In this document: positions 3,956-14,100 of the stretch, in pieces | Layout: the number at the start of each line of letters is the position of its first letter | How positions within the stretch are numbered: position 1 is the first letter of the stretch | Program-made: the position numbers and the translations under genes | The notes under the pieces: model-generated | What the model saw: only the letters and a program-made list of their open reading frames with translations | Database searches by the model: none | Told to the model about the DNA's origin: nothing | Source of the DNA: Leptotrichia trevisanii DSM 22070 | GTDB taxonomy: Bacteria > Fusobacteriota > Fusobacteriia > Fusobacteriales > Leptotrichiaceae | Assembly (NCBI RefSeq): GCF_000482505.1 | Contig: NZ_AXVL01000034.1 | Span: 1 to 32,960, forward strand | Length of the DNA: 32,960 bases | Direction of reading: 5' to 3'

Positions 3956-4840
3956 TTATTCAATCGTAATTTTTCTTGGAATAATCCTTTTTTTCTGAGC
4001 AATTTCCCTATCTTTCCCCAAATTATCCAAAATTTTGATTAAATACTGATAAAGTTCCTCGTTACTATGATTCTCATGTTCCATTTGTAATTTTAAATTA
4101 ACATAGGCAATTATAACATCTCTCTCCACACTTCCGTTTAAGCAATTTACATAAAAATTAACATCATAAATATCCAAATTTGCCTTTTTGGAAGCCTCTT
4201 TTCCAAATAGTTCCAAAATTTTAGGATGAAGTGTCCCAAATTCATGTCTTGAAGAACATTTTGTATTTATCAGTTCCAGCAAGTTAAAATCACGTCTTAA
4301 ATCTATAAAACTATTATAATCATTTCTAAGTTCCGCCCCAACTCTTGTAATAAATCGTGTTATTTCAATTTCTCCAATTTTCTTTCTTCTAGTATTTTCA
4401 ATATTATCAGCACTCACTTCTAATTGATTATTCAAATCAAATTCATTTTTAGTAAATCCATCTTCATTCTTTATTTCAATATTTTCTCCATTATTCAAAA
4501 TTTCTAGTGAAAAATCAGCACTTCTAACATAAAATTTTCTTTCTTCAAAGTCTGAAAGCAACTTTAGTTTTAAAACATATCTATTCTCGATTTCAGGCAT
4601 ATCAAATTTATAATCCTCATTCATCCAAAAAATTTTTCCACCACATTTCACAATTCCTTTTGTTACTGTCACTTGCTTATTTTCTGTATCTGCAACAAGA
4701 TTAAATCCTGAAATTATTCCATCTTTTCTATCCAAATACAATAATTCTGTCAATTCAGCTGGATTATCCCTCAATAAATCAAGTGCCTCCTTACTTATTA
4801 CCTGTCCAGTCCCAAATATCGGATACTTATTTTCAACCAT
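3956..4840 (-). CDS. Putative baseplate/tail-fibre-like protein of the injection island
   Basis: The 294-residue protein has no signal peptide or membrane helix. Residues 5-75 (YPIFGTGQVISKEALDLL, then DGIISGFNLVAD, VTVTKGIVKCGGKIF) resemble N-terminal domains of phage baseplate and tail-fibre proteins, where a 'G.v.GF.v......vtV..G.a...G' pattern forms a beta-domain binding the baseplate. The middle part (about 90-165) is beta-rich; the C-terminal 130 residues are helical and highly charged, with a conserved-looking IDLRRDFNLLELIN segment. It starts 23 bases after the sheath-like gene stop, with GGGGG just upstream of its ATG, so the two are co-transcribed. Order after the sheath gene and the phage-like N-terminus suggest a structural or adaptor role; I cannot assign it to TssK, TssE or TssF with confidence. 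Confidence 0.45.
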   Translation of the reverse strand: MVENKYPIFGTGQVISKEALDLLRDNPAELTELLYLDRKDGIISGFNLVADTENKQVTVTKGIVKCGGKIFWMNEDYKFDMPEIENRYVLKLKLLSDFEERKFYVRSADFSLEILNNGENIEIKNEDGFTKNEFDLNNQLEVSADNIENTRRKKIGEIEITRFITRVGAELRNDYNSFIDLRRDFNLLELINTKCSSRHEFGTLHPKILELFGKEASKKANLDIYDVNFYVNCLNGSVERDVIIAYVNLKLQMEHENHSNEELYQYLIKILDNLGKDREIAQKKRIIPRKITIE

Positions 4841-4863: not shown

Positions 4864-7029
4864 CTAATTTTTATTAATTTCAACTTGTAAATTCTTCAAG
4901 TTTCCTGCAAAAGTTATATTTAACTGGCAAATTCCATTATCCACATCAATTATATGCGACAAGTCATCCCCTTTTTGCATAATTCCATTTACAAATTTTG
5001 TATCTTTTAACCATACTGATTTCTGACTTTCAGGATTTGTGCTGAAAAATATATTCAACTTGTCTTCCTTAAAGTCTGTTGTTATAAACCTTAGCGTTCT
5101 TTCGATATACGTTGTCGTAAGTGTCTTGTAAAGCGGTTCATAACCTCCATCCAGATTTTTTAGCAAAGTTCTTGCCTTGTATACAACTATATTCCGTATT
5201 TTTTCACGTGCCACATTCGCATTATCCGATGAAAATACAAATCCATAGTTAAACTGATTTATCCTATCTTTTATTGTATTTGTAAATCCTGATATTTCCT
5301 TAGACATTGTTGTTTTTGTATGATAAGAATTGTCCTTTTCCTCAATATCAAAACGTACTCCTGGATACTGTGGTGATACGTTTGAAAATCTTTCTTTCAA
5401 GTAATTTGGACATTGCGTAGCACCAATTATTCCAGCTGCAACATATGACGCATCAACATATACGCCTTCTATCCAGAATTTTAACAAATCTTCCTGTTCT
5501 TTTGAAAGTGATACCCCTGTTTCTTCTTCAAATTTCATTTTATAATCCAGCATAACACCTGATTTATCCTTTGGAATTATAGTAAAATTAGGAATTACTG
5601 GTATTAAATATTCAGAATATTTCTGATTTTCCAACACTTGGGTCTTTTCAATATATTTATCCACACCCATTGTAGCTAGATTGTCAAACGAAGTTTCAGG
5701 CTTTCCTTCAAAATTAAAAAATACTTGAACTCTATATTCTGCCAGCACAGTCATTAAATTTGTCAAAACTTCAACTGTATTTTTCTCAGTTTTCTCATCT
5801 TTTTTACTCCCCATAAATCTTTCACGAACTTTTTTCTCAGATTTTTTCATCTCCAAATCAACATTTGGATAAATCCCAAACCATACAGTATTGTTAAAAT
5901 CATTCTTTTCATTAGTTGTGTTCAAAAATGCTCTCAATTTATCCTTATTTCCAGCCTTTACAATCATTTCAGGCTTTATATTTGTAATCAAAAGCGTCGG
6001 TTTCATAAGCCCCATTCTCACATCATACTGTTCAAAAAACATTTTTACACCCAATATTTTTTCAATCAGAGGTTTCGCAATTTTTATAAAATCCTCCTGT
6101 GCCGACTTATAAAACGCCAAATAATTGTTATAATTTTCAACTTCCTGCTCAGGATCAACATCCACAAATGTCTTTGCAAGCGGCACAAACGTTCTAACAA
6201 CCAAATCGCTAATATATTTATTCGGCTCATCTGTCACATTTTCATAGTCATCTTTAAAAGCCTCAACTAGAGCCGTCGTATTTTTCTCTTCAATCATTGC
6301 AAGTGAAGTTTGATTTTCCTGCTTATACTCAATTACTTCAAGTTCCCCTTTTTCTCCTACTTGCAGCATTCCCAGCTTTATTTTCTCTGATTTAAAATTA
6401 TTTGTATCATTTCCAATTAAAAGCCGAGTTTTTATATCTTCAATCGCAAGTGGCAACATCCCAAGTACATTACTGTAATTTTCCGAAGCCTCCTCAAATT
6501 TTGAGTTAAGTTTATCCCCTAATTCCAGTTTTTTAGGATTCTCATCATCCAATTCTTCATATTTCTGATAAATATACGCAATCTCTTTTCTCGTTTGTTT
6601 AATATCCTCGATAACCTTTTTCGGTGAAATTAACTCCAAAATATTTTCAAACTTAAAATCCACATTCCTGTTCCCTTGCGACTTTCTAGCCTCAATCAAG
6701 GTACTAAGCATTTTAAAAAACGTATTTCCATTATTAATCTTAATTTCTGTCACAAGATCCTCAGGCACTCCCTCCGGCTTTTTCAAAATATACTTAATAC
6801 TCTGACTCTCTGCATCAAAATAACTGTACACCTTTGGATCAAATTTTTCCAAAAATTCCTCAAAACTCCCAACTAAAAGGTGCTTGTTAATCTCAATAAC
6901 ATTCTCATCATCCAGCGAATCCATATCCCTCGCATCATTAATAAGTGTCAAGATATCCATTTTCTCTGGATTAATTTCCTCAAATAAAATCGTTCGATTA
7001 GTCTGATTTATAACATTTTTATTCCCCAT
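4864..7029 (-). CDS. Putative contractile sheath protein, TssB-TssC-like fusion
   Basis: The 721-residue protein has no signal peptide or membrane segment. Residues about 45-200 follow the TssB/VipA pattern: a strand with FEEFLEKFDPKV, then SIKYI, then FENILELISPKKVIEDIKQT and a charged helix (family: 'FdevL..i.P.l...v.n......l.F.sl.DFsPd.v..qvp.L..l...R'). Residues about 230-721 follow TssC: VEVLTNLMTVLAEYRVQVFF with the start of a 'F...l.tmgvdkyi' segment, YSEYLIPVIPNF, the NQFNYGFVFSSDN part and a final strand GICQLNITFAGNLKNLQVEI like the TssC end. The combined length matches TssB plus TssC. I choose the ATG at 7029 because the duplicated copy at 8754 shares this start and AAAAGGAAA leader, while upstream codons diverge. 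The gene is followed by the baseplate-like gene. Assignment is by pattern; no profile was run. Confidence 0.5.
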   Translation of the reverse strand: MGNKNVINQTNRTILFEEINPEKMDILTLINDARDMDSLDDENVIEINKHLLVGSFEEFLEKFDPKVYSYFDAESQSIKYILKKPEGVPEDLVTEIKINNGNTFFKMLSTLIEARKSQGNRNVDFKFENILELISPKKVIEDIKQTRKEIAYIYQKYEELDDENPKKLELGDKLNSKFEEASENYSNVLGMLPLAIEDIKTRLLIGNDTNNFKSEKIKLGMLQVGEKGELEVIEYKQENQTSLAMIEEKNTTALVEAFKDDYENVTDEPNKYISDLVVRTFVPLAKTFVDVDPEQEVENYNNYLAFYKSAQEDFIKIAKPLIEKILGVKMFFEQYDVRMGLMKPTLLITNIKPEMIVKAGNKDKLRAFLNTTNEKNDFNNTVWFGIYPNVDLEMKKSEKKVRERFMGSKKDEKTEKNTVEVLTNLMTVLAEYRVQVFFNFEGKPETSFDNLATMGVDKYIEKTQVLENQKYSEYLIPVIPNFTIIPKDKSGVMLDYKMKFEEETGVSLSKEQEDLLKFWIEGVYVDASYVAAGIIGATQCPNYLKERFSNVSPQYPGVRFDIEEKDNSYHTKTTMSKEISGFTNTIKDRINQFNYGFVFSSDNANVAREKIRNIVVYKARTLLKNLDGGYEPLYKTLTTTYIERTLRFITTDFKEDKLNIFFSTNPESQKSVWLKDTKFVNGIMQKGDDLSHIIDVDNGICQLNITFAGNLKNLQVEINKN

Positions 7030-7047
7030 TTTCCTTTTAAAATTATT
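6836..7047 (-). repeat. Direct repeat copy A: 5' end of the sheath-like gene
   Basis: About 212 bases containing the ribosome site, start and first 67 codons of the sheath-like gene are repeated at 8561-8772 in the same orientation. By eye there are about eleven mismatches, nearly all in the distal third; roughly the last 95 bases up to and including the ribosome site are identical. A second block of similarity, the promoter region, is at 7071-7160. Confidence 0.9.
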
Positions 7048-7129
7048 TTCCATATTATATTTTAAACAATACTTCAAATAACTTCAATTCCCCTTTCTTT
7101 ATGTTTTTAATTTATTTTTAATTAATATA

Positions 7130-7158
7130 ATGATACACTATAATTAAGATTTTGTCAA
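7130..7158 (-). promoter_or_regulatory. Promoter of the sheath-like gene
   Basis: On the minus strand TTGACA (7153-7158) and TATCAT (7130-7135) are separated by 17 bases. The surrounding bases match the promoter at 8904-8932 closely, showing that the duplication included the promoter. Predicted leader about 95 nt. Confidence 0.75.
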
Positions 7159-7188
7159 TATCATTATTTTCAATTTTATTTTTAAATT

Positions 7189-8133
7189 TTATTCTGTATA
7201 ATAAACATTTTCTCCTTCACCACTTATATCCCCATTTTCATGAAATGTCAAAGAGCCCTTTATTTTCCCGTTTTCATAATATTCAACATATTTTCTTTTC
7301 CCATTCTTATAAATTATTTCAGAATGCAATTTTCCATTCTCAAAATATGTTCTAAACTTGCCATTTCCATTAACTACTTCCCCCTGATCCCTTATTGAGC
7401 CATCCTTATTATAATCCGCCCATTTTCCTTCAATTTCACCATTTTTATACATAGTTTCTGAACTTATTCTACCATTCTTATAATAAGTAATACTCTTACC
7501 GTGTATAATTCCATTCAAATAATTAGTTACAGTAGCCAACTTGCCATTTTCATAATAATATCGCCCTTCTCCATGTCTTTTACCATTCTTAAAATTCTCT
7601 TCTACCTCAATTTCTCCATTATCAAAATATCGTATTTCCTTTCCATTTTGAATATTATTTTTATATTCTAATATCCAATATATTTTACCGTTCTCATTAT
7701 ACCAGTATTCCTTTCCTTCAAGTTTTCCATTTCTATAATTTGCTTCTCGAAGTTTTGTACCATTTTGAAAAAAAGAAATAGTTTTTCCTTCTCTCCTATT
7801 GTACGAATTATCATCTCTTCCCCAACAATCATATTCATCTGTTGCCTGATATATTTCATTTAATGTTCCGTCTAAATCATGTTGAGTAATTAAATATGTT
7901 CCATTATTTTTTTCATGTAAAACTCTGTAATATTTTGCTCTTTCTTTTCCTTTTGTAATATTACAAGAATCATCAAAATATCCAATAAATTTCCCTTTTT
8001 TCTCAAATTCTTTTATATCTGAAATTATTTTTTGATATTTTTTATCAATTTTATTATCTGCCATACAGGATATACTAAAAATAAAAAAATACATCATTAT
8101 TATATTTTTTATAATTTTATTTTTTAATCTCAT
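7189..8133 (-). CDS. MORN-type-repeat lipoprotein, putative immunity protein
   Basis: The 314-residue product starts with a lipoprotein signal (basic MRLKNKIIKN, hydrophobic core, lipobox ending SISC at residues 20-23). From about residue 100 to the end it is built of roughly nine or ten repeats of the form YxxNGKI...YKNGxxxGK, for example YFDNGEIEVEENFKNGKRHG and YYKNGRISSETMYKNGEIEG. This is the MORN_2/YwqK-type repeat (PF07661), often called an antitoxin repeat because members sit beside toxins. The start at 8133 has GGAGAG eight bases upstream. It begins 30 bases after the stop of the M15 chimera, in the same transcript, so I infer that it protects the cell envelope from that peptidase. 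It could also be a general surface protein. Confidence 0.65.
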   Translation of the reverse strand: MRLKNKIIKNIIMMYFFIFSISCMADNKIDKKYQKIISDIKEFEKKGKFIGYFDDSCNITKGKERAKYYRVLHEKNNGTYLITQHDLDGTLNEIYQATDEYDCWGRDDNSYNRREGKTISFFQNGTKLREANYRNGKLEGKEYWYNENGKIYWILEYKNNIQNGKEIRYFDNGEIEVEENFKNGKRHGEGRYYYENGKLATVTNYLNGIIHGKSITYYKNGRISSETMYKNGEIEGKWADYNKDGSIRDQGEVVNGNGKFRTYFENGKLHSEIIYKNGKRKYVEYYENGKIKGSLTFHENGDISGEGENVYYTE

Positions 8134-8163
8134 AATTACCACTCTCCATAATTCTATATTTTT

Positions 8164-8754
8164 TTAAGGTGTATAACTCAATTTATTTCCTCTATCTTTA
8201 TAATCTTGGTAATGTTGACTTGCTGTTTTACCAAATCTAAATTGAAAATGTGGTTTGTCTTTAAACTTAATTCCCCATTCTGTACCAAATTTTACAGCTT
8301 CATTATTAAATAATTTATAATCTTTTTCTCTCCAGTATGCTTTTTCATTTTCTATTGTACAAACATCAATAGCTAAACCGTAATTATGATAACTGTATCC
8401 TGCTTTAACCCGTGTTACTACAGGCCCTTTTGTTGTTCTCCCTTTTTTATAAAGTTCATTTTGCTGAGCATGACTTCTGTATCCATCTGTGACTCTCATT
8501 CTTACCTTATATTTATCTTCCATAAAATTTATCAAATGTTTTACTGTACATCTTATTCTAGGATCTAATTTTTCCAAAAATTCTTTAAAGCTTCCAACCA
8601 AAAGATGCCTGTTAATCTCAATAACATTCTCATCATCCAGCGAATCCATATCCCTTGCATCATTAATAAGCGTCAATATATCCATTTTCTCTGGATTAAT
8701 TTCCTCAAATAAAATCGTTCGATTAGTCTGATTTATAACATTTTTATTCCCCAT
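8164..8754 (-). CDS. Chimeric effector: sheath N-terminus fused to M15 peptidoglycan peptidase
   Basis: Of 196 residues, 1-67 copy the start of the sheath-like protein at 4864-7029: the first 48 are identical and five conservative or charge changes follow (K49R, E57K, F63L, K66R, V67I). Residues 68-196 are a complete M15 (VanY/Ply500-type) domain: VTDGYRSHAQQNELYKKGRT, then SYHNYGLAIDV and TEWGIKFKDKPHFQF. H123, D130 and H169 are the expected zinc ligands and E159 the likely catalytic glutamate. This family cleaves peptide stems of peptidoglycan, typically the L-Ala-D-Glu or D-Ala-D-Ala bond. No signal peptide is present, so delivery must come from another route; the sheath-derived N-terminus may be the loading tag or only a scar of the duplication. 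A MORN-repeat lipoprotein gene follows after 30 bases. Confidence 0.8.
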   Translation of the reverse strand: MGNKNVINQTNRTILFEEINPEKMDILTLINDARDMDSLDDENVIEINRHLLVGSFKEFLEKLDPRIRCTVKHLINFMEDKYKVRMRVTDGYRSHAQQNELYKKGRTTKGPVVTRVKAGYSYHNYGLAIDVCTIENEKAYWREKDYKLFNNEAVKFGTEWGIKFKDKPHFQFRFGKTASQHYQDYKDRGNKLSYTP

Positions 8755-8772
8755 TTTCCTTTTAAAATTATT
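8561..8772 (-). repeat. Direct repeat copy B: 5' end of the M15 chimera
   Basis: This is the counterpart of 6836-7047, at an offset of 1725 bases. Homology ends sharply at codon 67 on the coding side and just beyond the ribosome site on the upstream side; after an unrelated insert of about 70 bases, similarity resumes over 8847-8934, which holds the promoter. Confidence 0.9.
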
Positions 8773-8903
8773 CTTAGCATCATATAAAAATTAATTACTG
8801 GCTATCAACTTTTTGCAATCCATTTAAACCAATTTTAGACGATATTCCAAATAACTTTATTTTCCCCCTTCTTTATATTTTTAATTTTTTTTTAATTAAT
8901 GTG

Positions 8904-8932
8904 ATGATACAATAAAATTTAAGATTTGTCAA
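8904..8932 (-). promoter_or_regulatory. Promoter of the M15 chimera and its lipoprotein
   Basis: On the minus strand TTGACA (8927-8932) and TATCAT (8904-8909) with a 17-base spacer, nearly the same as the sheath promoter at 7130-7158. Leader length is about 145 nt because of the extra bases between promoter and gene. Confidence 0.75.
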
Positions 8933-9037
8933 TATTTATTGTGACTGATCTTATTAATTTTGTAGAATTATTCTCACCTTATTATCTTATACTTTACATT
9001 TGAATTTGAAGTAGAATTGTAGAATTCTTCACATCAC

Positions 9038-9991
9038 TCAAAAGACATTTCTACTTTCCACAACTTTTACATTTTCAAAATTTTTTCCACTATATTCAAA
9101 TATCTTTCCAGCATCATAAATATAAATAATATTTTTATAGAGTATAAGACTCACATTTTTATAATCCATTATTTTAATTTCTTTTATTACTTTTTTATTA
9201 TTATATTCATCTACTATCATAATTTTATTATTTTTTAGAATATATGCTGGACTACAAAAACTATCTTCGATTTGATTGTCAAAAAATTTTTCTGCTCCTC
9301 TATTTTCATTTTCTGTCCATTCTTCAGATGTTATAGGTTCAATTTTTTCTAATTTCTCTATAACTTCATCTATCTTTTTCAATCCATATCTTCCATCTAT
9401 ATAATAGTTACCATGTTCAACTTCAATAGTTATAGTTTCCAATATTTTTTCTATTTCTTCTTTTGAATAATTTTTTTCTAAAAATTCAAAAAAACTTTTT
9501 TTATAAAAACTCTTTCTACCTGCATCTATATTTGAATTTGGTAACCCATTATTATATTCTGATATTTCTGCAACTAAATATTCCATTATTTCTAGCTTAT
9601 TGATAACCCAATCTAAGTTATGCTCTTCTTCTTTTTTTAACAATTCCAACATTATTTCTATGATTTTTTTTATTCTTTCTTCTTTTGGTAAATTTTCAAA
9701 AATTTGAGAACTGTCTCTTAATTTTATTAAATTTTTTTCTTTATTTTTTATATATTTTTTTAAAATATTATTACTTGAAACATTAATGCAGTCATATCGA
9801 TCATTTGAAAAAACATAATCTAAATAAGAGTATTTTTTAAAAAAATCTTCTAAACTTGATGTTTCTTTTTTATTTTGATTTTGAATTTTCACTTTTTTCA
9901 TATCCTCCTTGTTTTTTAAAGTTGTATTTTCTTTGTTTTTAGCACCACAGGAAATTGTTAATAAAACTAGTGGAATTATTAATTTTTTCAT
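9038..9991 (-). CDS. Lipoprotein of unknown function, putative immunity to the DUF4280 effector
   Basis: The product (317 residues from the ATG at 9991) begins MKKLIIPLVLLTISC, a clear lipoprotein signal with the modified Cys at residue 15. The start is chosen because GAAAGGG lies six bases upstream; the in-frame ATG at 10009 would cover this site. After a Lys-rich linker the body is helical and highly charged (for example YSKEEIEKILETITIEVEHG), and the last 60 residues look beta-rich (KNNKIMIVDEYNNKKVIKEI, NVSLILYKNIIYIYDAGKIF), perhaps a small propeller-like or beta-sandwich end. I do not recognise a family. It starts 65 bases after the large effector gene, which is the usual place for an immunity gene, and being a lipoprotein it would act where a peptidoglycan enzyme acts. 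Confidence 0.6.
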   Translation of the reverse strand: MKKLIIPLVLLTISCGAKNKENTTLKNKEDMKKVKIQNQNKKETSSLEDFFKKYSYLDYVFSNDRYDCINVSSNNILKKYIKNKEKNLIKLRDSSQIFENLPKEERIKKIIEIMLELLKKEEEHNLDWVINKLEIMEYLVAEISEYNNGLPNSNIDAGRKSFYKKSFFEFLEKNYSKEEIEKILETITIEVEHGNYYIDGRYGLKKIDEVIEKLEKIEPITSEEWTENENRGAEKFFDNQIEDSFCSPAYILKNNKIMIVDEYNNKKVIKEIKIMDYKNVSLILYKNIIYIYDAGKIFEYSGKNFENVKVVESRNVF

Positions 9992-10056
9992 TTTATACCC
10001 TTTCTTCATATAAAAATTTATAATTATCTAAAATGAAATCTCAATAAAATATATAC

Positions 10057-13000
10057 CTATTTGTTTATTTTATTAGATACTCTCAATCTAAATTTTATAA
10101 GTTCATTATGATTTACAACTTTTTTTTCCTCTATTTTTTTAATAAATTTTATTATTTCATTAAATAAATCTTGAGACCCTTGTGTAACGTATCTATCCCC
10201 ATTTCTTTTATAATTTCTCGCAGGTGCCAAACATCCTTCTAAACCAGAACTTACTCCAACTGGATGAATTAAAACAAATCTATTTTCATGAATTAAAACT
10301 TTTTTCTTTAATCTTTTATGTTCTAAACCTTGAGGATTTTCAGTATGATTAAAAACACCTACTGCTAAATACCCTTTCCGTATTATTTTTCCGTTTTTTA
10401 TTTTATCAGGTCTTTGATGCCATCTCAATTGATGCATACCTTGTACAATTCTCTTTTTTCTACCAGAAACAATCGTATCAGGACCTTCTCTCTCAACTAC
10501 ATATCCATTAAATCCAGAAACTTCCCTACCACTAGGATCTAATATACGAAATGTAGATAATGTACCTAATGAACGTTCTTCTATTCTCACAACATCTAAA
10601 ATATATTTCCCTTGTACTCCAGTATGTGGACATGTTTTACAACTCGTAACTGCTTGAGAACTTTTAGTATTATTTTGACTCTTAGCATTACTTTCTGTTT
10701 TTGTATTTTTACTAACAGATTTTACAGTATTAGATTTTGAGTTCAGAACATTTGACTGATATTTAGCTGTATTCTCCTTGATTTCCATTTTAGGACTATT
10801 ATCACTTTTTTTCTGTGTAGTATTATTAGATTTTGAAGAACTATGAGTTTCATCCCACACTCCTTGACTAAACGGGCACACCGCCACACTTCTTCCATTT
10901 TTTCTTATGGCATTTAACACATCTCTCGCAGTTGGAGCATGTTTTGTAGAGGTATAAAGCATTTTCCCTATTCCAATCCAGTTTGACACATCTGATGATT
11001 TTATTCTTTGTTTTGGAATTGTCTTTGTCTGTTTTACATTTATTTGTATTTTGTAGTTCTGTAATTTTATCTGTTCTGTATTTATAGTATTTACATCACT
11101 ATTTAATTCTGATTCAATCAGTTTTTTTGCATTTTCTGTTATAGTCAGATTTCCAGCACGCATTAAATACCCATAAGTTATTACAGGGAGCATTTTTGCA
11201 GAATAAAAACGTTTTCTTTCGTAATCACACAAACTTAAGCCATAGTTTTTTATTATCCCTTTAGTATCAAATTTAGGCCCTGATTTTTGTTTTACACTTT
11301 TATAGGCTTCCTTGAATGTGGCATAAATTCTTTTTCTTAAATATTTTTCTTTTTCCGAAGTAACTTCCTGATTTGCAATTTGCATTTTTGCCTTATTTTT
11401 CTTTATGAAATTTTCTTTGTCTTTCTTTTCAAAATCAGTTAATTTTCTCATTCCAAGCATATTTTTTACATCCTTTGAAAAATATGAACGCATGTTGTTC
11501 ATTACTCCAGTTTTATATCTCTTCCACTTAGCAAAGTTCTGTGCCTCTTTTTTTAATTTCGTCTGCATAAAATTATTGTTTACATCACTACAAATGTTTA
11601 TTAACAGCCTGTATTGACAATCCGCATCTCTTACAGCTTCCTTAAATTCCTTAGCCTTAGTAACTGCTGTTCCCACTTCCTTTTGCCCAGCATCATCAAT
11701 GCTTATCGTTCCACCGTGCATACATTGTATAGTCGAAATATCCAATAATGCAGGCTTATCCCTCACTTTTACATCTGTATTTTTCTCCCACGCCCCTATT
11801 AACGCAGGTTGGCAAATTCCAATAGCACTACAGGACTTAAACGGCTGTATTTTAGTATCATTTATATTTGCCTGCTTTCCTCCTTTAAGCATAACTCTAT
11901 CCTCATTTATTATTAACCTACTAATATCCTTTCCAAGTGTACACTTTAACATGCAGTTAGTATTTACAAACAGTTCCCCAGTAGGATTTATAACATTCTG
12001 CAAGTCATAAAATGATTTATAAAAGGCGTACAAGTCCATAGAATCAATATTTGCCGCATAATCTCTTAATTCCTTGCTGTCCTTAAATAAAGCCTGAATA
12101 ATACTTTTATCTTTCTCAAAATCTGAATCATCCCTGTAATTTTCATAGACTTCATCAATCAAATTGCTTATTTTTCTGATATTTCGCACTTTTATAGCTG
12201 ATTTTGAAGTTATCCAGTCATTAAGAACAGTAGTTACCCTTATATCTTTTCCAATTTTTTGAAGCCTGCCAAATAGTCCCATTTCACTTTTCGAAGGCAA
12301 ATCTATTCCCTTGTGTTTTTTTATATACCATAACAAATAATTTCTCACTATGTTACTATCTCTGTATTTATGGTTATCAAAATACTTAATTTCATTTTCT
12401 TCCTTAAATCCAGTCTGTACCTTCAAAAATTCAATTATTATATTGTCAATCAGTCTTCTTGACAAAGGAAATTGCCTAACTCCATTTTCGTCCATCAAAT
12501 AAGTTTTTTCATATTCCAGCTCATTTTTACCAAGTTCCCTTATCAAATTTTCACATCTTGTCTTTTGCAATTCTGATGGCTGTTTTTTACTAACTTTTAT
12601 AACAATTTCGTCAATATCCTTTATTCCTTGCATATATTTATCATATTTTTCAGGCAATTTATTTTTTTCAATCTTAACTTCCTCATCTTTTACATGTATT
12701 TGAATCACGCCTTGTATTTTATCCACATAATCATTTTGCTTCTTAAATTTATTTACTGGTTTTTTATCAGGAAATTTCACATATTTTGCCGAATATTGAC
12801 TAAACACATATTCTAAAGATTCCACAGCACTTTTATTTGGAATAGGATACGAATAAATATAATAAACTATATCCTGAATCCGCAAAACTTCATTATTTTC
12901 TTCCCTTCCTCTTAAAATATCAAACCCATGCTGTCTTATCACATTTCCAATATTCCTGTTATCTTTGGTTGCCTCGTCATACATTTTCAAAATAACATTT

Positions 13001-14100
13001 ATGTCTTCCTTGTTCTCTTCCAACACCTTTTTCCCAGTCTTAGTTTCCAAATATTTTACATAATCCTGATTATAAACATTTTCATCTTGAAACTTAGCTT
13101 GCAATCTCTTTAAAATAGCCTCTTCTGGACTTACAAAAGCTAATTCAGGAGCTTTCCCGTTTTCAGCTCTATCCCTCTTATACTCTTCACTATCCCAGAC
13201 TTCCTCAAATTTCTGCCCATTAAATGTAAACACTCCTACTTTGCTGTTATTTTCAGCATTTTCCATTTTTGCAGTATTTGATGTTGAAGCAGGCTTTTGC
13301 ATTTGTGTCGATTTTGGCTGGGAATTATTTGAAACATTAGTTTTAGGTTTCTGTTGGACTACTGCCTGTTTATTTATATTTTTGTTATCAGTTTGAGTAT
13401 GATTCTTCTCCACAACTTTATGCCCAACTTCACAATTATCTTTAAATCCAATGATTACTGATAAATCATATCCTGCTAAATTTTCAGCATAAAGTAAGGA
13501 AGGCATTGCATTTCCATCTACTGGTATTCCCCAGACACCTTTAAAATTATTCTCCAAAGCATTAGACATCGCACCTTGCCCACATAAATGTGATGCCGCC
13601 ATCATTCCAGATGATGTAAGCAAAAAACTTTTTCCCCTCAAATCTTCTGCTTTATATCCATACTTTCGTTTTTTCATCATTGTTTCTTTTACTATTTTTT
13701 CAGAAACCGTTACTTTTCCTGGACCTTTATAAATCGCATTTTTAGGAACTGATATGTTTTTACAAATTTTATCCTTATGTTTTTTCATAGTTGCCCATCT
13801 CATCTTTACAGAACGCATCATAACTTCATCCTGAGCTGCAGGCGTATTTAAAAAACTACGTTTACCTGTTAATTTCCATTTTGTTGCACCTTCACCAATA
13901 AATCTAGCATTTGCCCAAGTTGAACCTTTTGGAAGCCAACCCATATCCATCAGAACATCTGTTCCAATTTGATATTTTCCGATATAAGAACTTTGATCTG
14001 CTAAATTATATTTTCCACCACTTTCCAATATCGCTAATTTTTCAAAAAATTCAACTGCACTATCCCCAATATCTACCCCATTAAATTTCCTGTTTACCAC
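10057..14100 (-). CDS. Multidomain DUF4280 (PAAR-like) effector with two cell-wall domains
   Basis: The 1347-residue protein starts at a GTG nine bases after GGGGG. Domain 1 (about 15-215) is lysozyme-like: FFEKLAILESGGKYN with probable catalytic E26, then SYIGKYQIGTDVLMDMGW, as in transglycosylases carried by phage tails and VgrG proteins. A Lys/Asn/Gln/Ser linker follows (about 230-285). Domain 2 (about 705-803) is DUF4280 (PF14107): TNCMLKCTLGKDISRLII, FKSCSAIGICQP and IQCMHGGTISIDDAGQ, a PAAR-like fold with paired Cys expected to cap a spike. Domain 3 (about 1155-1347, after a Ser/Asn linker and CKTCPHTG) ends with FVLIHPVGVSSGLEGCLAP, resembling DUF5675 or L,D-transpeptidase active sites (H...GC). 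It has no signal peptide. The likely role is a contractile-system spike effector attacking peptidoglycan; a lipoprotein gene follows as possible immunity. Confidence 0.7.
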   Translation of the reverse strand: MVNRKFNGVDIGDSAVEFFEKLAILESGGKYNLADQSSYIGKYQIGTDVLMDMGWLPKGSTWANARFIGEGATKWKLTGKRSFLNTPAAQDEVMMRSVKMRWATMKKHKDKICKNISVPKNAIYKGPGKVTVSEKIVKETMMKKRKYGYKAEDLRGKSFLLTSSGMMAASHLCGQGAMSNALENNFKGVWGIPVDGNAMPSLLYAENLAGYDLSVIIGFKDNCEVGHKVVEKNHTQTDNKNINKQAVVQQKPKTNVSNNSQPKSTQMQKPASTSNTAKMENAENNSKVGVFTFNGQKFEEVWDSEEYKRDRAENGKAPELAFVSPEEAILKRLQAKFQDENVYNQDYVKYLETKTGKKVLEENKEDINVILKMYDEATKDNRNIGNVIRQHGFDILRGREENNEVLRIQDIVYYIYSYPIPNKSAVESLEYVFSQYSAKYVKFPDKKPVNKFKKQNDYVDKIQGVIQIHVKDEEVKIEKNKLPEKYDKYMQGIKDIDEIVIKVSKKQPSELQKTRCENLIRELGKNELEYEKTYLMDENGVRQFPLSRRLIDNIIIEFLKVQTGFKEENEIKYFDNHKYRDSNIVRNYLLWYIKKHKGIDLPSKSEMGLFGRLQKIGKDIRVTTVLNDWITSKSAIKVRNIRKISNLIDEVYENYRDDSDFEKDKSIIQALFKDSKELRDYAANIDSMDLYAFYKSFYDLQNVINPTGELFVNTNCMLKCTLGKDISRLIINEDRVMLKGGKQANINDTKIQPFKSCSAIGICQPALIGAWEKNTDVKVRDKPALLDISTIQCMHGGTISIDDAGQKEVGTAVTKAKEFKEAVRDADCQYRLLINICSDVNNNFMQTKLKKEAQNFAKWKRYKTGVMNNMRSYFSKDVKNMLGMRKLTDFEKKDKENFIKKNKAKMQIANQEVTSEKEKYLRKRIYATFKEAYKSVKQKSGPKFDTKGIIKNYGLSLCDYERKRFYSAKMLPVITYGYLMRAGNLTITENAKKLIESELNSDVNTINTEQIKLQNYKIQINVKQTKTIPKQRIKSSDVSNWIGIGKMLYTSTKHAPTARDVLNAIRKNGRSVAVCPFSQGVWDETHSSSKSNNTTQKKSDNSPKMEIKENTAKYQSNVLNSKSNTVKSVSKNTKTESNAKSQNNTKSSQAVTSCKTCPHTGVQGKYILDVVRIEERSLGTLSTFRILDPSGREVSGFNGYVVEREGPDTIVSGRKKRIVQGMHQLRWHQRPDKIKNGKIIRKGYLAVGVFNHTENPQGLEHKRLKKKVLIHENRFVLIHPVGVSSGLEGCLAPARNYKRNGDRYVTQGSQDLFNEIIKFIKKIEEKKVVNHNELIKFRLRVSNKINK

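What the first reader, a model, noticed from the sequence alone, without database searches (positions are those of the whole stretch)
8164..8940. M15 peptidase chimera made by duplicating the promoter and 5' end of the sheath gene
Seen: 212 bases (8561-8772) copy 6836-7047 with about eleven mismatches, and the promoter block is copied too (8847-8934 versus 7071-7160, both TTGACA-17-TATCAT). The first 48 residues are identical. At codon 67 the sequence switches to a complete M15 domain with all zinc ligands (H123, D130, H169). The sheath-derived N-terminus may be a delivery tag that places the enzyme in the sheath or tube, or simply a captured promoter and start. Either way this shows modular effector gain in front of a structural gene.
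Basis: partly seen in the sequence, partly recalled or inferred. Interest (0 to 1): 0.75.

Follow-up and report, generated by a model that had tools for sequence, protein, structure and literature searches.

The report
Displaced toxin tail given sheath start
In an oral Leptotrichia bacterium, a weapon protein swapped its peptidoglycan-cutting tip for a new one, and the old tip was left behind as a separate small gene because it happened to join, in frame, to the promoter and first codons of a sheath gene.

Summary
In detail: ORF 8164-8754(-) joins a sheath-type promoter and N-terminus (11 mismatches in 212 bases) to an intact M15 domain. The explanation needs changing. The M15 part is not a gained effector: it is 93-95% identical to the C-terminal tip of the DUF4280 (PAAR-like) spike at the same locus in two sister Leptotrichia genomes. 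The window's spike has another tip (DUF5675-like) plus lipoprotein; this tract (8941-10650) is 97.9% identical to genome G010, though the trunk beside it is only 87.9%. So a tip cassette was imported. Its left end lies in 24 bases shared by the trunks; at its right end sheath codons meet the old M15 tip in a 13-base near-identity (12/13). The old tip kept an in-frame promoter and start. This is C-terminal displacement, known from Rhs, CDI and T6SS loci, in an unusual form. The two sheath 5' ends are different alleles rather than sister copies, though the donor of 8575-8935 is unresolved. A delivery tag is not supported: of 159 places with this N-terminus in 751 genomes, only this gene is a chimera. 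The 737-aa neighbour matches contractile-sheath folds, on a moderate-confidence model.

The parts
8164..8754 (-). Chimeric ORF, 196 aa: sheath N-terminus fused to an M15 peptidase domain
8574..8754 (-). Sheath-derived start of the chimera (about 60 codons)
8561..8573 (-). Right-hand junction: 13-base near-identity between sheath gene and spike-M15 gene (12 of 13), changeover in AAAAATT 8573-8567
8167..8566 (-). Displaced M15 (VanY-type) tip of the former spike; 97.0% DNA identity to the G009 and 94.4% to the G008 spike tip
8904..8932 (-). Promoter-like TTGACA-17-TATCAT of the chimera
8755..8903 (-). Leader before the chimera; keeps a segment that the window's own sheath leader lacks
8941..10650 (-). 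Imported cassette core: new spike tip, lipoprotein-like gene and downstream flank; 97.9% to G010 at 100% coverage; no match in the G009, G008 and G006 loci
10666..10689 (-). Left-hand boundary region: 24 bases identical in window, G009 and G010 spike genes
9038..10009 (-). Lipoprotein-like partner of the new tip (probable immunity protein, inferred); 98% aa identity in G010
   Evidence: lipobox read by eye
10057..14100 (-). Spike protein: DUF4280 (PAAR-like) trunk with DUF5675-like C-terminal tip
7189..8142 (-). MORN-repeat lipoprotein-like gene, downstream neighbour of M15 tips in G006 and (interrupted) G009; possible retained immunity gene (inferred)
4864..7077 (-). Intact contractile-sheath-like protein (721 aa from the ATG at 7029, 737 aa from an upstream TTG)
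7130..7158 (-). Promoter-like TTGACA-17-TATCAT of the intact sheath gene
3956..4840 (-). Conserved protein of unknown role; homologues in 31 of the 41 fetched loci compared (sheath in 32)

Best explanation
The gene is the displaced C-terminal tip of an earlier allele of the neighbouring DUF4280 spike. Shown by comparison: sister genomes carry this M15 domain as the end of the spike, and the window's spike carries another tip inside a tract of foreign similarity. Inferred steps: DNA with [trunk end - DUF5675-like tip - lipoprotein - sheath promoter and 5' end] entered; its left end recombined in the homologous trunk; its right end joined by homology-facilitated illegitimate recombination at a 13-base near-match where the old M15 domain begins. 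The new cassette was thus added in front of the old tip instead of replacing it. The old tip became an in-frame continuation of a truncated sheath gene, with promoter and start codon, and the MORN gene stayed behind it. The product would be a cytoplasmic M15 enzyme without a delivery trunk. Most likely it has no delivered function and is at most a reservoir for re-joining to a spike; the MORN gene may still protect against kin that carry M15 tips.
For:: M15 residues 57-196 match the ends of 1332- and 1338-aa frames in G009 and G008 (95 and 93%), within a conserved gene order; trunk 10700-14100 is 95.1% to G009 and 87.9% to G010; 8941-10650 is 97.9% to G010 with no match in the G009 locus; 8167-8566 is 97.0% to G009 with no match in the G010 locus; MORN 5' end 8000-8150 is 100% to G009; 24-base identity at the left edge; 12 of 13 at the right edge; 14 of 200000 random breakpoint pairs did as well; three tip types (M15, DUF5675-like, CHAP-like) alternate at this locus in 10 genomes of the genus, with an intact lipoprotein-like gene after the tip in 8 of the 10; no other M15 match at E<=0.001 in this genome. 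Searches (passages of PMC8125069; passages of PMC5361080): the same kind of event was proposed for rhs and Vibrio T6SS loci.
Against: The stretch 8575-8935 (promoter plus sheath start) is not especially G010-like (91.7%, against 93.9% to G009), so its donor is unresolved and it may not have come in one piece with 8941-10650. The MORN gene as immunity is weak: of 3 relatives with M15-tipped spikes, only G006 has it intact directly downstream; in G009 it is interrupted by a mobile element, and in G008 only part of it matches. The middle of the window's MORN gene is G006-like, so more than one recombination occurred. The chimera is known from one assembly only. The ORF is intact, with 3 replacement codons and 8 silent base changes against G009, so decay is not visible and some function cannot be excluded.
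Confidence: 0.8

Rival explanations
1. One reading: the genome's own sheath promoter and 5' end were tandemly duplicated and an M15 domain was then joined to the copy.
For: Two copies of promoter and 5' end are present. The chimera's 5' stretch is nearer to the G009-type backbone than to G010. Both copies read GAATTTTTGG near the junction, where 5 of 6 relatives aligned differ.
Against: The copies are not each other's nearest relatives (10 of 180 mismatches, against 6 and 8 to G009). The window's own copy lacks a leader segment that the chimera and relatives keep. The upstream flanks belong to different tip cassettes. It does not explain why the M15 domain sits where the old spike tip would lie. 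An old duplication followed by divergence is not excluded.
Confidence: 0.1
2. The sheath N-terminus is a tag that places an M15 effector in the sheath, tube or baseplate for delivery.
For: The frame is intact with promoter-like and ribosome-binding-like sequences, the zinc ligands are intact, and the genome has a second sheath locus with a tube-like gene plus hub-type matches.
Against: 0 other chimeras among 159 places in 751 genomes: 156 lie in full-length sheath-size frames, and the two other short frames (83 aa in G012, 45 aa in G520) are sheath genes with internal deletions. The join falls at the end of the second N-terminal helix (56-63), before the strand 66-72, of the sheath model. Relatives carry the same domain on a spike.
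Confidence: 0.06
3. The orphan is expressed inside the cell as a toxin-immunity-like module, as reported for orphan Rhs toxins in Salmonella.
For: PMC7043789 (passages) reports internally expressed orphan Rhs toxins; here a promoter-like site and a start codon are present.
Against: An M15 peptidoglycan peptidase without an evident signal peptide (by eye) should have no substrate in the cytoplasm (inference).
Confidence: 0.04
4. Assembly artefact: two alleles of a mixed sample were joined.
For: 78-contig draft; the chimera is seen in one genome only.
Against: The junction is a 13-base imperfect match, short for an assembler to join on (inference). Contamination is given as 0.32%. The frame is preserved through the junction.
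Confidence: 0.03

Closest known systems
C-terminal displacement at rhs loci (PMC8125069, passages read)
   Same: Conserved 5' part, variable 3' tip, old tip left downstream with a neighbour gene; paired homologous and illegitimate recombination.
   Different: A DUF4280 spike in Leptotrichia, and the old tip is joined in frame to a structural gene's promoter and start.
Orphan CdiA-CT/CdiI modules (PMC9086364, passages read)
   Same: Displaced toxin tip with retained partner gene, without delivery part.
   Different: CDI orphan toxin genes lack an initiation codon according to that review; this one has one, and it is not a CdiA.
Vibrio cholerae T6SS effector displacement (PMC5361080, abstract and passages read)
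   Same: New effector-immunity module added, perhaps by homology-facilitated illegitimate recombination, with the old immunity gene kept.
   Different: That paper stresses retained immunity genes; here the toxin domain remains too, with both junctions readable.
Salmonella orphan Rhs toxin (PMC7043789, passages read)
   Same: Orphan tip with transcription and translation of its own.
   Different: There internal promoters and a CTG start; here a sheath gene's promoter and ATG start.
Phage endolysins Ply500 (PDB 2vo9) and LysB4 (6akv)
   Same: Nearest solved relatives of the M15 domain by sequence (E 9.2e-17 and 5.2e-15).
   Different: 2vo9 and 6akv are phage lysins (from recall); here the domain derives from a spike tip.
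Speculated 'unknown phage-like translocation system' of Firmicutes with DUF4280 and Phage_GPD neighbours (PMC8651086, passages read)
   Same: DUF4280 proteins and GPD-type matches occur in this genome, and the same sheath family occurs in Paenibacillus and Lysinibacillus.
   Different: The passages seen name no sheath; that the two systems are one is my inference.

Membership tests
M15 (VanY-type) peptidase | Pfam score over curated cut-off | tested here: met
   VanY 40.5 bits against 25, Peptidase_M15_4 36.6 against 25
M15 (VanY-type) peptidase | Zinc ligands His, Asp, His | tested here: met
   H123 and D130 in SYHNYGLAID, H169 in DKPHF, aligned with the same residues of 2vo9; that these are the ligands is recalled
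M15 (VanY-type) peptidase | Peptidoglycan peptidase activity | not testable with these tools
   needs an enzyme assay
Product of C-terminal displacement (orphan polymorphic-toxin tip) | Homologous to the C-terminal tip of the full-length protein in relatives | tested here: met
Product of C-terminal displacement (orphan polymorphic-toxin tip) | Lies downstream of the intact gene, which now has another tip | tested here: met
Product of C-terminal displacement (orphan polymorphic-toxin tip) | Delivery trunk missing | tested here: met
Product of C-terminal displacement (orphan polymorphic-toxin tip) | Cognate immunity gene retained | tested here: inconclusive
   MORN gene retained, but intact directly downstream in only 1 of 3 M15-tipped relatives
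Orphan CdiA-CT module | No initiation codon of its own | tested here: not met
   ATG start and promoter-like site; feature taken from PMC9086364
Sheath-tagged effector class | Same N-terminus joined to different effectors elsewhere | tested here: not met
   156 of 159 places lie in frames of 714-807 aa; the other 3 are this gene and two sheath deletion remnants
Contractile sheath (4864-7077) | Sheath fold | tested here: met
   VIA-align rows 1-32 are all from contractile tails or injection systems, Z 14.5-10.3; 17 of the 32 titles name the sheath (e.g. 9f4a_SA Z 14.5, rmsd 3.5, 235 aligned; T4 gp18 3foa_B Z 11.4), the rest name tail, baseplate, neck or cap and their chain identity is not shown; next row 7.6. 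Caveats: model mean pLDDT 62.5; Foldseek alone gave 0 hits at E<=0.001
Contractile sheath (4864-7077) | Sequence match to a known sheath family | tested here: inconclusive
   None found in Pfam, NCBIfam, PHROGs or the PDB
DUF4280 PAAR-like spike (10057-14100) | Pfam PF14107 over cut-off | tested here: met
   48 bits against 26.3
DUF5675 tip (C-terminus of 10057-14100) | Pfam PF18925 over cut-off | tested here: not met
   24 bits against 26.7, E 3.8e-5; hence called DUF5675-like

The most novel reading that the evidence does not exclude
The accidental fusion was kept because it works. The sheath-derived start drives co-expression with the contractile machine and lets the M15 enzyme ride on, or be shed from, the sheath. 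That would be a sheath-borne peptidoglycan hydrolase, formed in one recombination step from a discarded spike tip.
Probability: 0.06. Interest if true: 0.75.

Novelty: new variant of a known kind. Interest (0 to 1): 0.42.

Why it matters
It is a readable footprint of toxin-tip replacement in which both recombination ends can be placed within a few tens of bases. It suggests that conserved machine genes flanking a toxin cassette can hand a discarded tip a promoter and start codon, a direct route from orphan tip to new gene. It also shows tip swapping between peptidoglycan-hydrolase-like modules in a contractile system of Fusobacteria whose sheath family has no Pfam model and is shared with Paenibacillus and Lysinibacillus.

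Tried and rejected
Tried without result: Pfam, NCBIfam, PHROG and PDB sequence searches for the sheath. Foldseek alone on the sheath model (nothing at E<=0.001). A model of the chimera (mean pLDDT 43.6, pTM 0.40) is too poor to say whether the N-terminus folds alone. dN/dS of the M15 part (0.0092/0.131 to G009) cannot separate constraint before from after displacement. In alignment A3 G006's tip came out misaligned; for A4, the alignment behind the chimera model, I dropped that row and the L084 sheath row. Paper searches for this system in Leptotrichia, Paenibacillus, Lysinibacillus, Fusobacteria or with DUF4280 and Firmicutes showed no title or abstract about this sheath; I saw listings only, except passages of PMC8651086 and a term search of PMC5014421 in which four taxon terms were not found. 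For sheath-effector fusions I ran one search (listing) and read passages of PMC3482391 from it.

Rejected: within-genome duplication as the simplest origin; delivery tag; assembly artefact (reasons under rivals). The two other short N-terminus frames looked like possible chimeras. The 45-aa frame of G520 is, by its place, the Lysinibacillus boronitolerans remnant L118; it and the 83-aa frame of G012 are sheath genes with internal deletions.

Full report
What is there. The ORF 8164-8754(-) encodes 196 aa. Its promoter-like site (8932-8904), leader and first ~60 codons resemble those of the intact gene 4864-7077; the 212-base repeat has 11 mismatches and residues 1-48 are identical. From base 8566 on, the sequence is an M15 domain with H123, D130 and H169, nearest in the PDB by sequence to Ply500 (2vo9) and LysB4 (6akv).

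Where it lies. Gene order in transcription direction: LRR lipoprotein-like gene, 1347-aa DUF4280 spike, lipoprotein-like gene 9038-10009, the chimera, MORN gene 7189-8142, the intact sheath, and gene 3956-4840. The window is a whole contig (C15) of a 78-contig genome. Relatives place it in Leptotrichia: G008 has a contig of the length of L. hongkongensis JMUB5056 and G011 one of the length of L. sp. oral taxon 879, and both are 'same genus'.

Where the M15 part comes from. In 60 genomes, residues 57-196 or nearly so hit 1332- and 1338-aa frames in G009 (95%) and G008 (93%), and a 1356-aa frame in G006 (50%). Those frames are the spike of the same locus, and the match is its C-terminal end. The window spike has a different, DUF5675-like tip, as in G010 (whole protein 90%) and G001 (82%). 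In G011 the tip is CHAP by Pfam (26.8 bits against 26), and G002, G003 and G004 have tips like G011's by eye. So ten genomes of the genus, the window included, show three tip types at one place. A lipoprotein-like gene (lipobox read by eye, no tool) follows intact in 8 of the 10; it is interrupted in G009 and only partly matched in G008. The other three of the 13 genomes of the genus (G005, G007, G012) have no intact copy of this sheath's N-terminus.

The mosaic. Tract identities: trunk 10700-14100 is 95.1% to G009 and 87.9% to G010. Cassette 8941-10650 is 97.9% to G010 over 100%, 72% over 21% to G001, and has no match in the loci of G009, G008, G006, G011, G002, G003 and G004. The stretch 8575-8935 is 93.9% to G009 and 91.7% to G010. 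The M15 tail 8167-8566 is 97.0% to G009 and 94.4% to G008, with no match in the G010 locus. The MORN 5' end is 100% to G009, the MORN middle 96.4% to G006, the MORN 3' part 97.1% to G009. Sheath 4864-7029 is 95.9% to G009 and 94.6% to G010. A foreign tip cassette therefore sits between a G009-like trunk and a G009-like old tip.

The joins. On the left, window, G009 and G010 share an identical 24-mer at 10689-10666. On the right, sheath and spike share AAAAATT(T/A)GATCC, 12 of 13, and the chimera changes over within it; 14 of 200000 random breakpoint pairs had as good a match. The right join lies where the M15 domain begins: G006's spike is alike up to the same KLDPRIRC and then diverges.

Not a simple duplication. 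In 180 coding bases the chimera differs from the window's own sheath at 10 positions, from G009's at 6, from G010's and G011's at 8, and from those of G008, G006 and G001 at 12, 12 and 22; the own sheath differs from G009's at 8. The own sheath lacks a leader segment that the chimera shares with relatives (286 of 362 columns identical, 51 gap positions). The flanks upstream of the two promoters are those of two different cassettes. The source of 8575-8935 remains open: it may have come with the cassette from an unsampled donor, or from an older allele of the recipient.

Tag test. The N-terminus was found at 37 places in 96 genomes of the order, 88 places in 394 genomes of the family of the Paenibacillus locus L105, and 34 places in 261 genomes of the family of the Lysinibacillus locus L111; the last two used the L105 N-terminus as query. 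Of these 159 places, 156 lie in frames of 714-807 aa, the size of whole sheath genes. The other three are this chimera, an 83-aa frame (G012) and a 45-aa frame (G520), the last two being deletion remnants of sheath genes. A DNA search of the 13 genomes of the genus found the whole junction only in the window. Phage and plasmid records gave no match. The genome-contig scan gave 16 loci: 13 sheath genes of Firmicutes (L105-L117), one Leptotrichia sheath (L104), the G008 locus (L103) and the remnant L118.

Is the neighbour really a sheath? No Pfam, NCBIfam, PHROG or PDB sequence family was found. A model from 19 sequences (mean pLDDT 62.5) gave no Foldseek hit at E<=0.001. VIA-align 2, run on Foldseek's 1000 best, put chains of contractile tails and injection systems in all of rows 1-32, Z 14.5-10.3, against 7.6 for the next; 17 of those 32 titles name the sheath. 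Genes beside its relatives include a 145-aa protein with weak TssD resemblance (E 0.016, below cut-off), DnaJ, two FHA proteins, a PP2C/TPR protein (PP2C below cut-off) and a kinase. I take it as a contractile sheath.

How it works, and what is inferred. Shown: homologies, mosaic, joins, open frame. Inferred: one incoming fragment, homologous join on the left, homology-facilitated illegitimate join on the right, loss of delivery for the M15 domain, MORN gene as immunity. The last point is weak, since only one of three M15-tipped relatives has it intact directly downstream. What the chimera does today these tools cannot tell; the most likely state is an expressed or silent orphan without delivered function.

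What is known. The kind of event is C-terminal displacement (PMC8125069, passages); homology-facilitated illegitimate recombination was proposed for it at Vibrio T6SS loci (PMC5361080, abstract and passages). CDI orphan toxin genes lack an initiation codon (PMC9086364, passages); a Salmonella orphan Rhs tip is translated from a CTG (PMC7043789, passages). A displaced tip that takes promoter and start from an adjacent machine gene did not appear in what I saw of four searches, which is no proof of absence.

Noticed in passing
window 4864-7077; L105, L111, L112: The sheath family has no Pfam model, yet its N-terminus is strongly conserved from Leptotrichia to the family of a Paenibacillus locus (88 of 394 genomes) and that of a Lysinibacillus locus (33 of 261), with DnaJ, FHA and PP2C-like neighbours; possibly the unnamed phage-like system suspected in PMC8651086.
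   Followed up: partly
G000 contig C33, L004:3413-5581: The genome has a second sheath gene (84% identical) in a fuller cluster with tube-like, DnaJ and FHA-like genes; the window locus looks like a satellite with sheath plus swappable spike.
   Followed up: partly
L036:14518 onwards and L037 (G009): The MORN gene of G009 is interrupted by a Tn916-like element with an integrase and a tet(M)-like gene, although its spike keeps the M15 tip (element names from recall, by reading the frames).
   Followed up: no
window 8755-8873 and same place in G001, G006, G008-G011: A leader frame (KLFG..LN.LQKVDS, shorter in G006 and altered in G001) without an ATG, GTG or TTG start follows a ribosome-binding-like AAGAAGGGGG (AAGAAAGGGG in G006 and G008), about 110 bases before the sheath ATG; in the window's own sheath a deletion there yields a continuous 737-aa frame from TTG.
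   Followed up: partly
L118:5995-6260: Lysinibacillus boronitolerans has a second locus whose sheath gene is reduced to about 44 N-terminal codons plus its C-terminal end, beside open tube-like and hub-like frames (weak Pfam matches).
   Followed up: partly
L053:10506-10754 (G012): A decayed remnant of sheath and tube-like sequence remains in a genome of the genus that lacks an intact copy of this sheath's N-terminus.
   Followed up: partly
window 7500-7950: The middle of the MORN gene is 96.4% identical to G006, whereas both ends are 97-100% identical to G009: a further recombination inside the presumed immunity gene.
   Followed up: no
G000 contigs C75, C74, C69, C20, C1: The genome holds four DUF4280 matches (3 over cut-off, one of them the window spike) and four GPD-type hub matches (3 over cut-off).
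   Followed up: no
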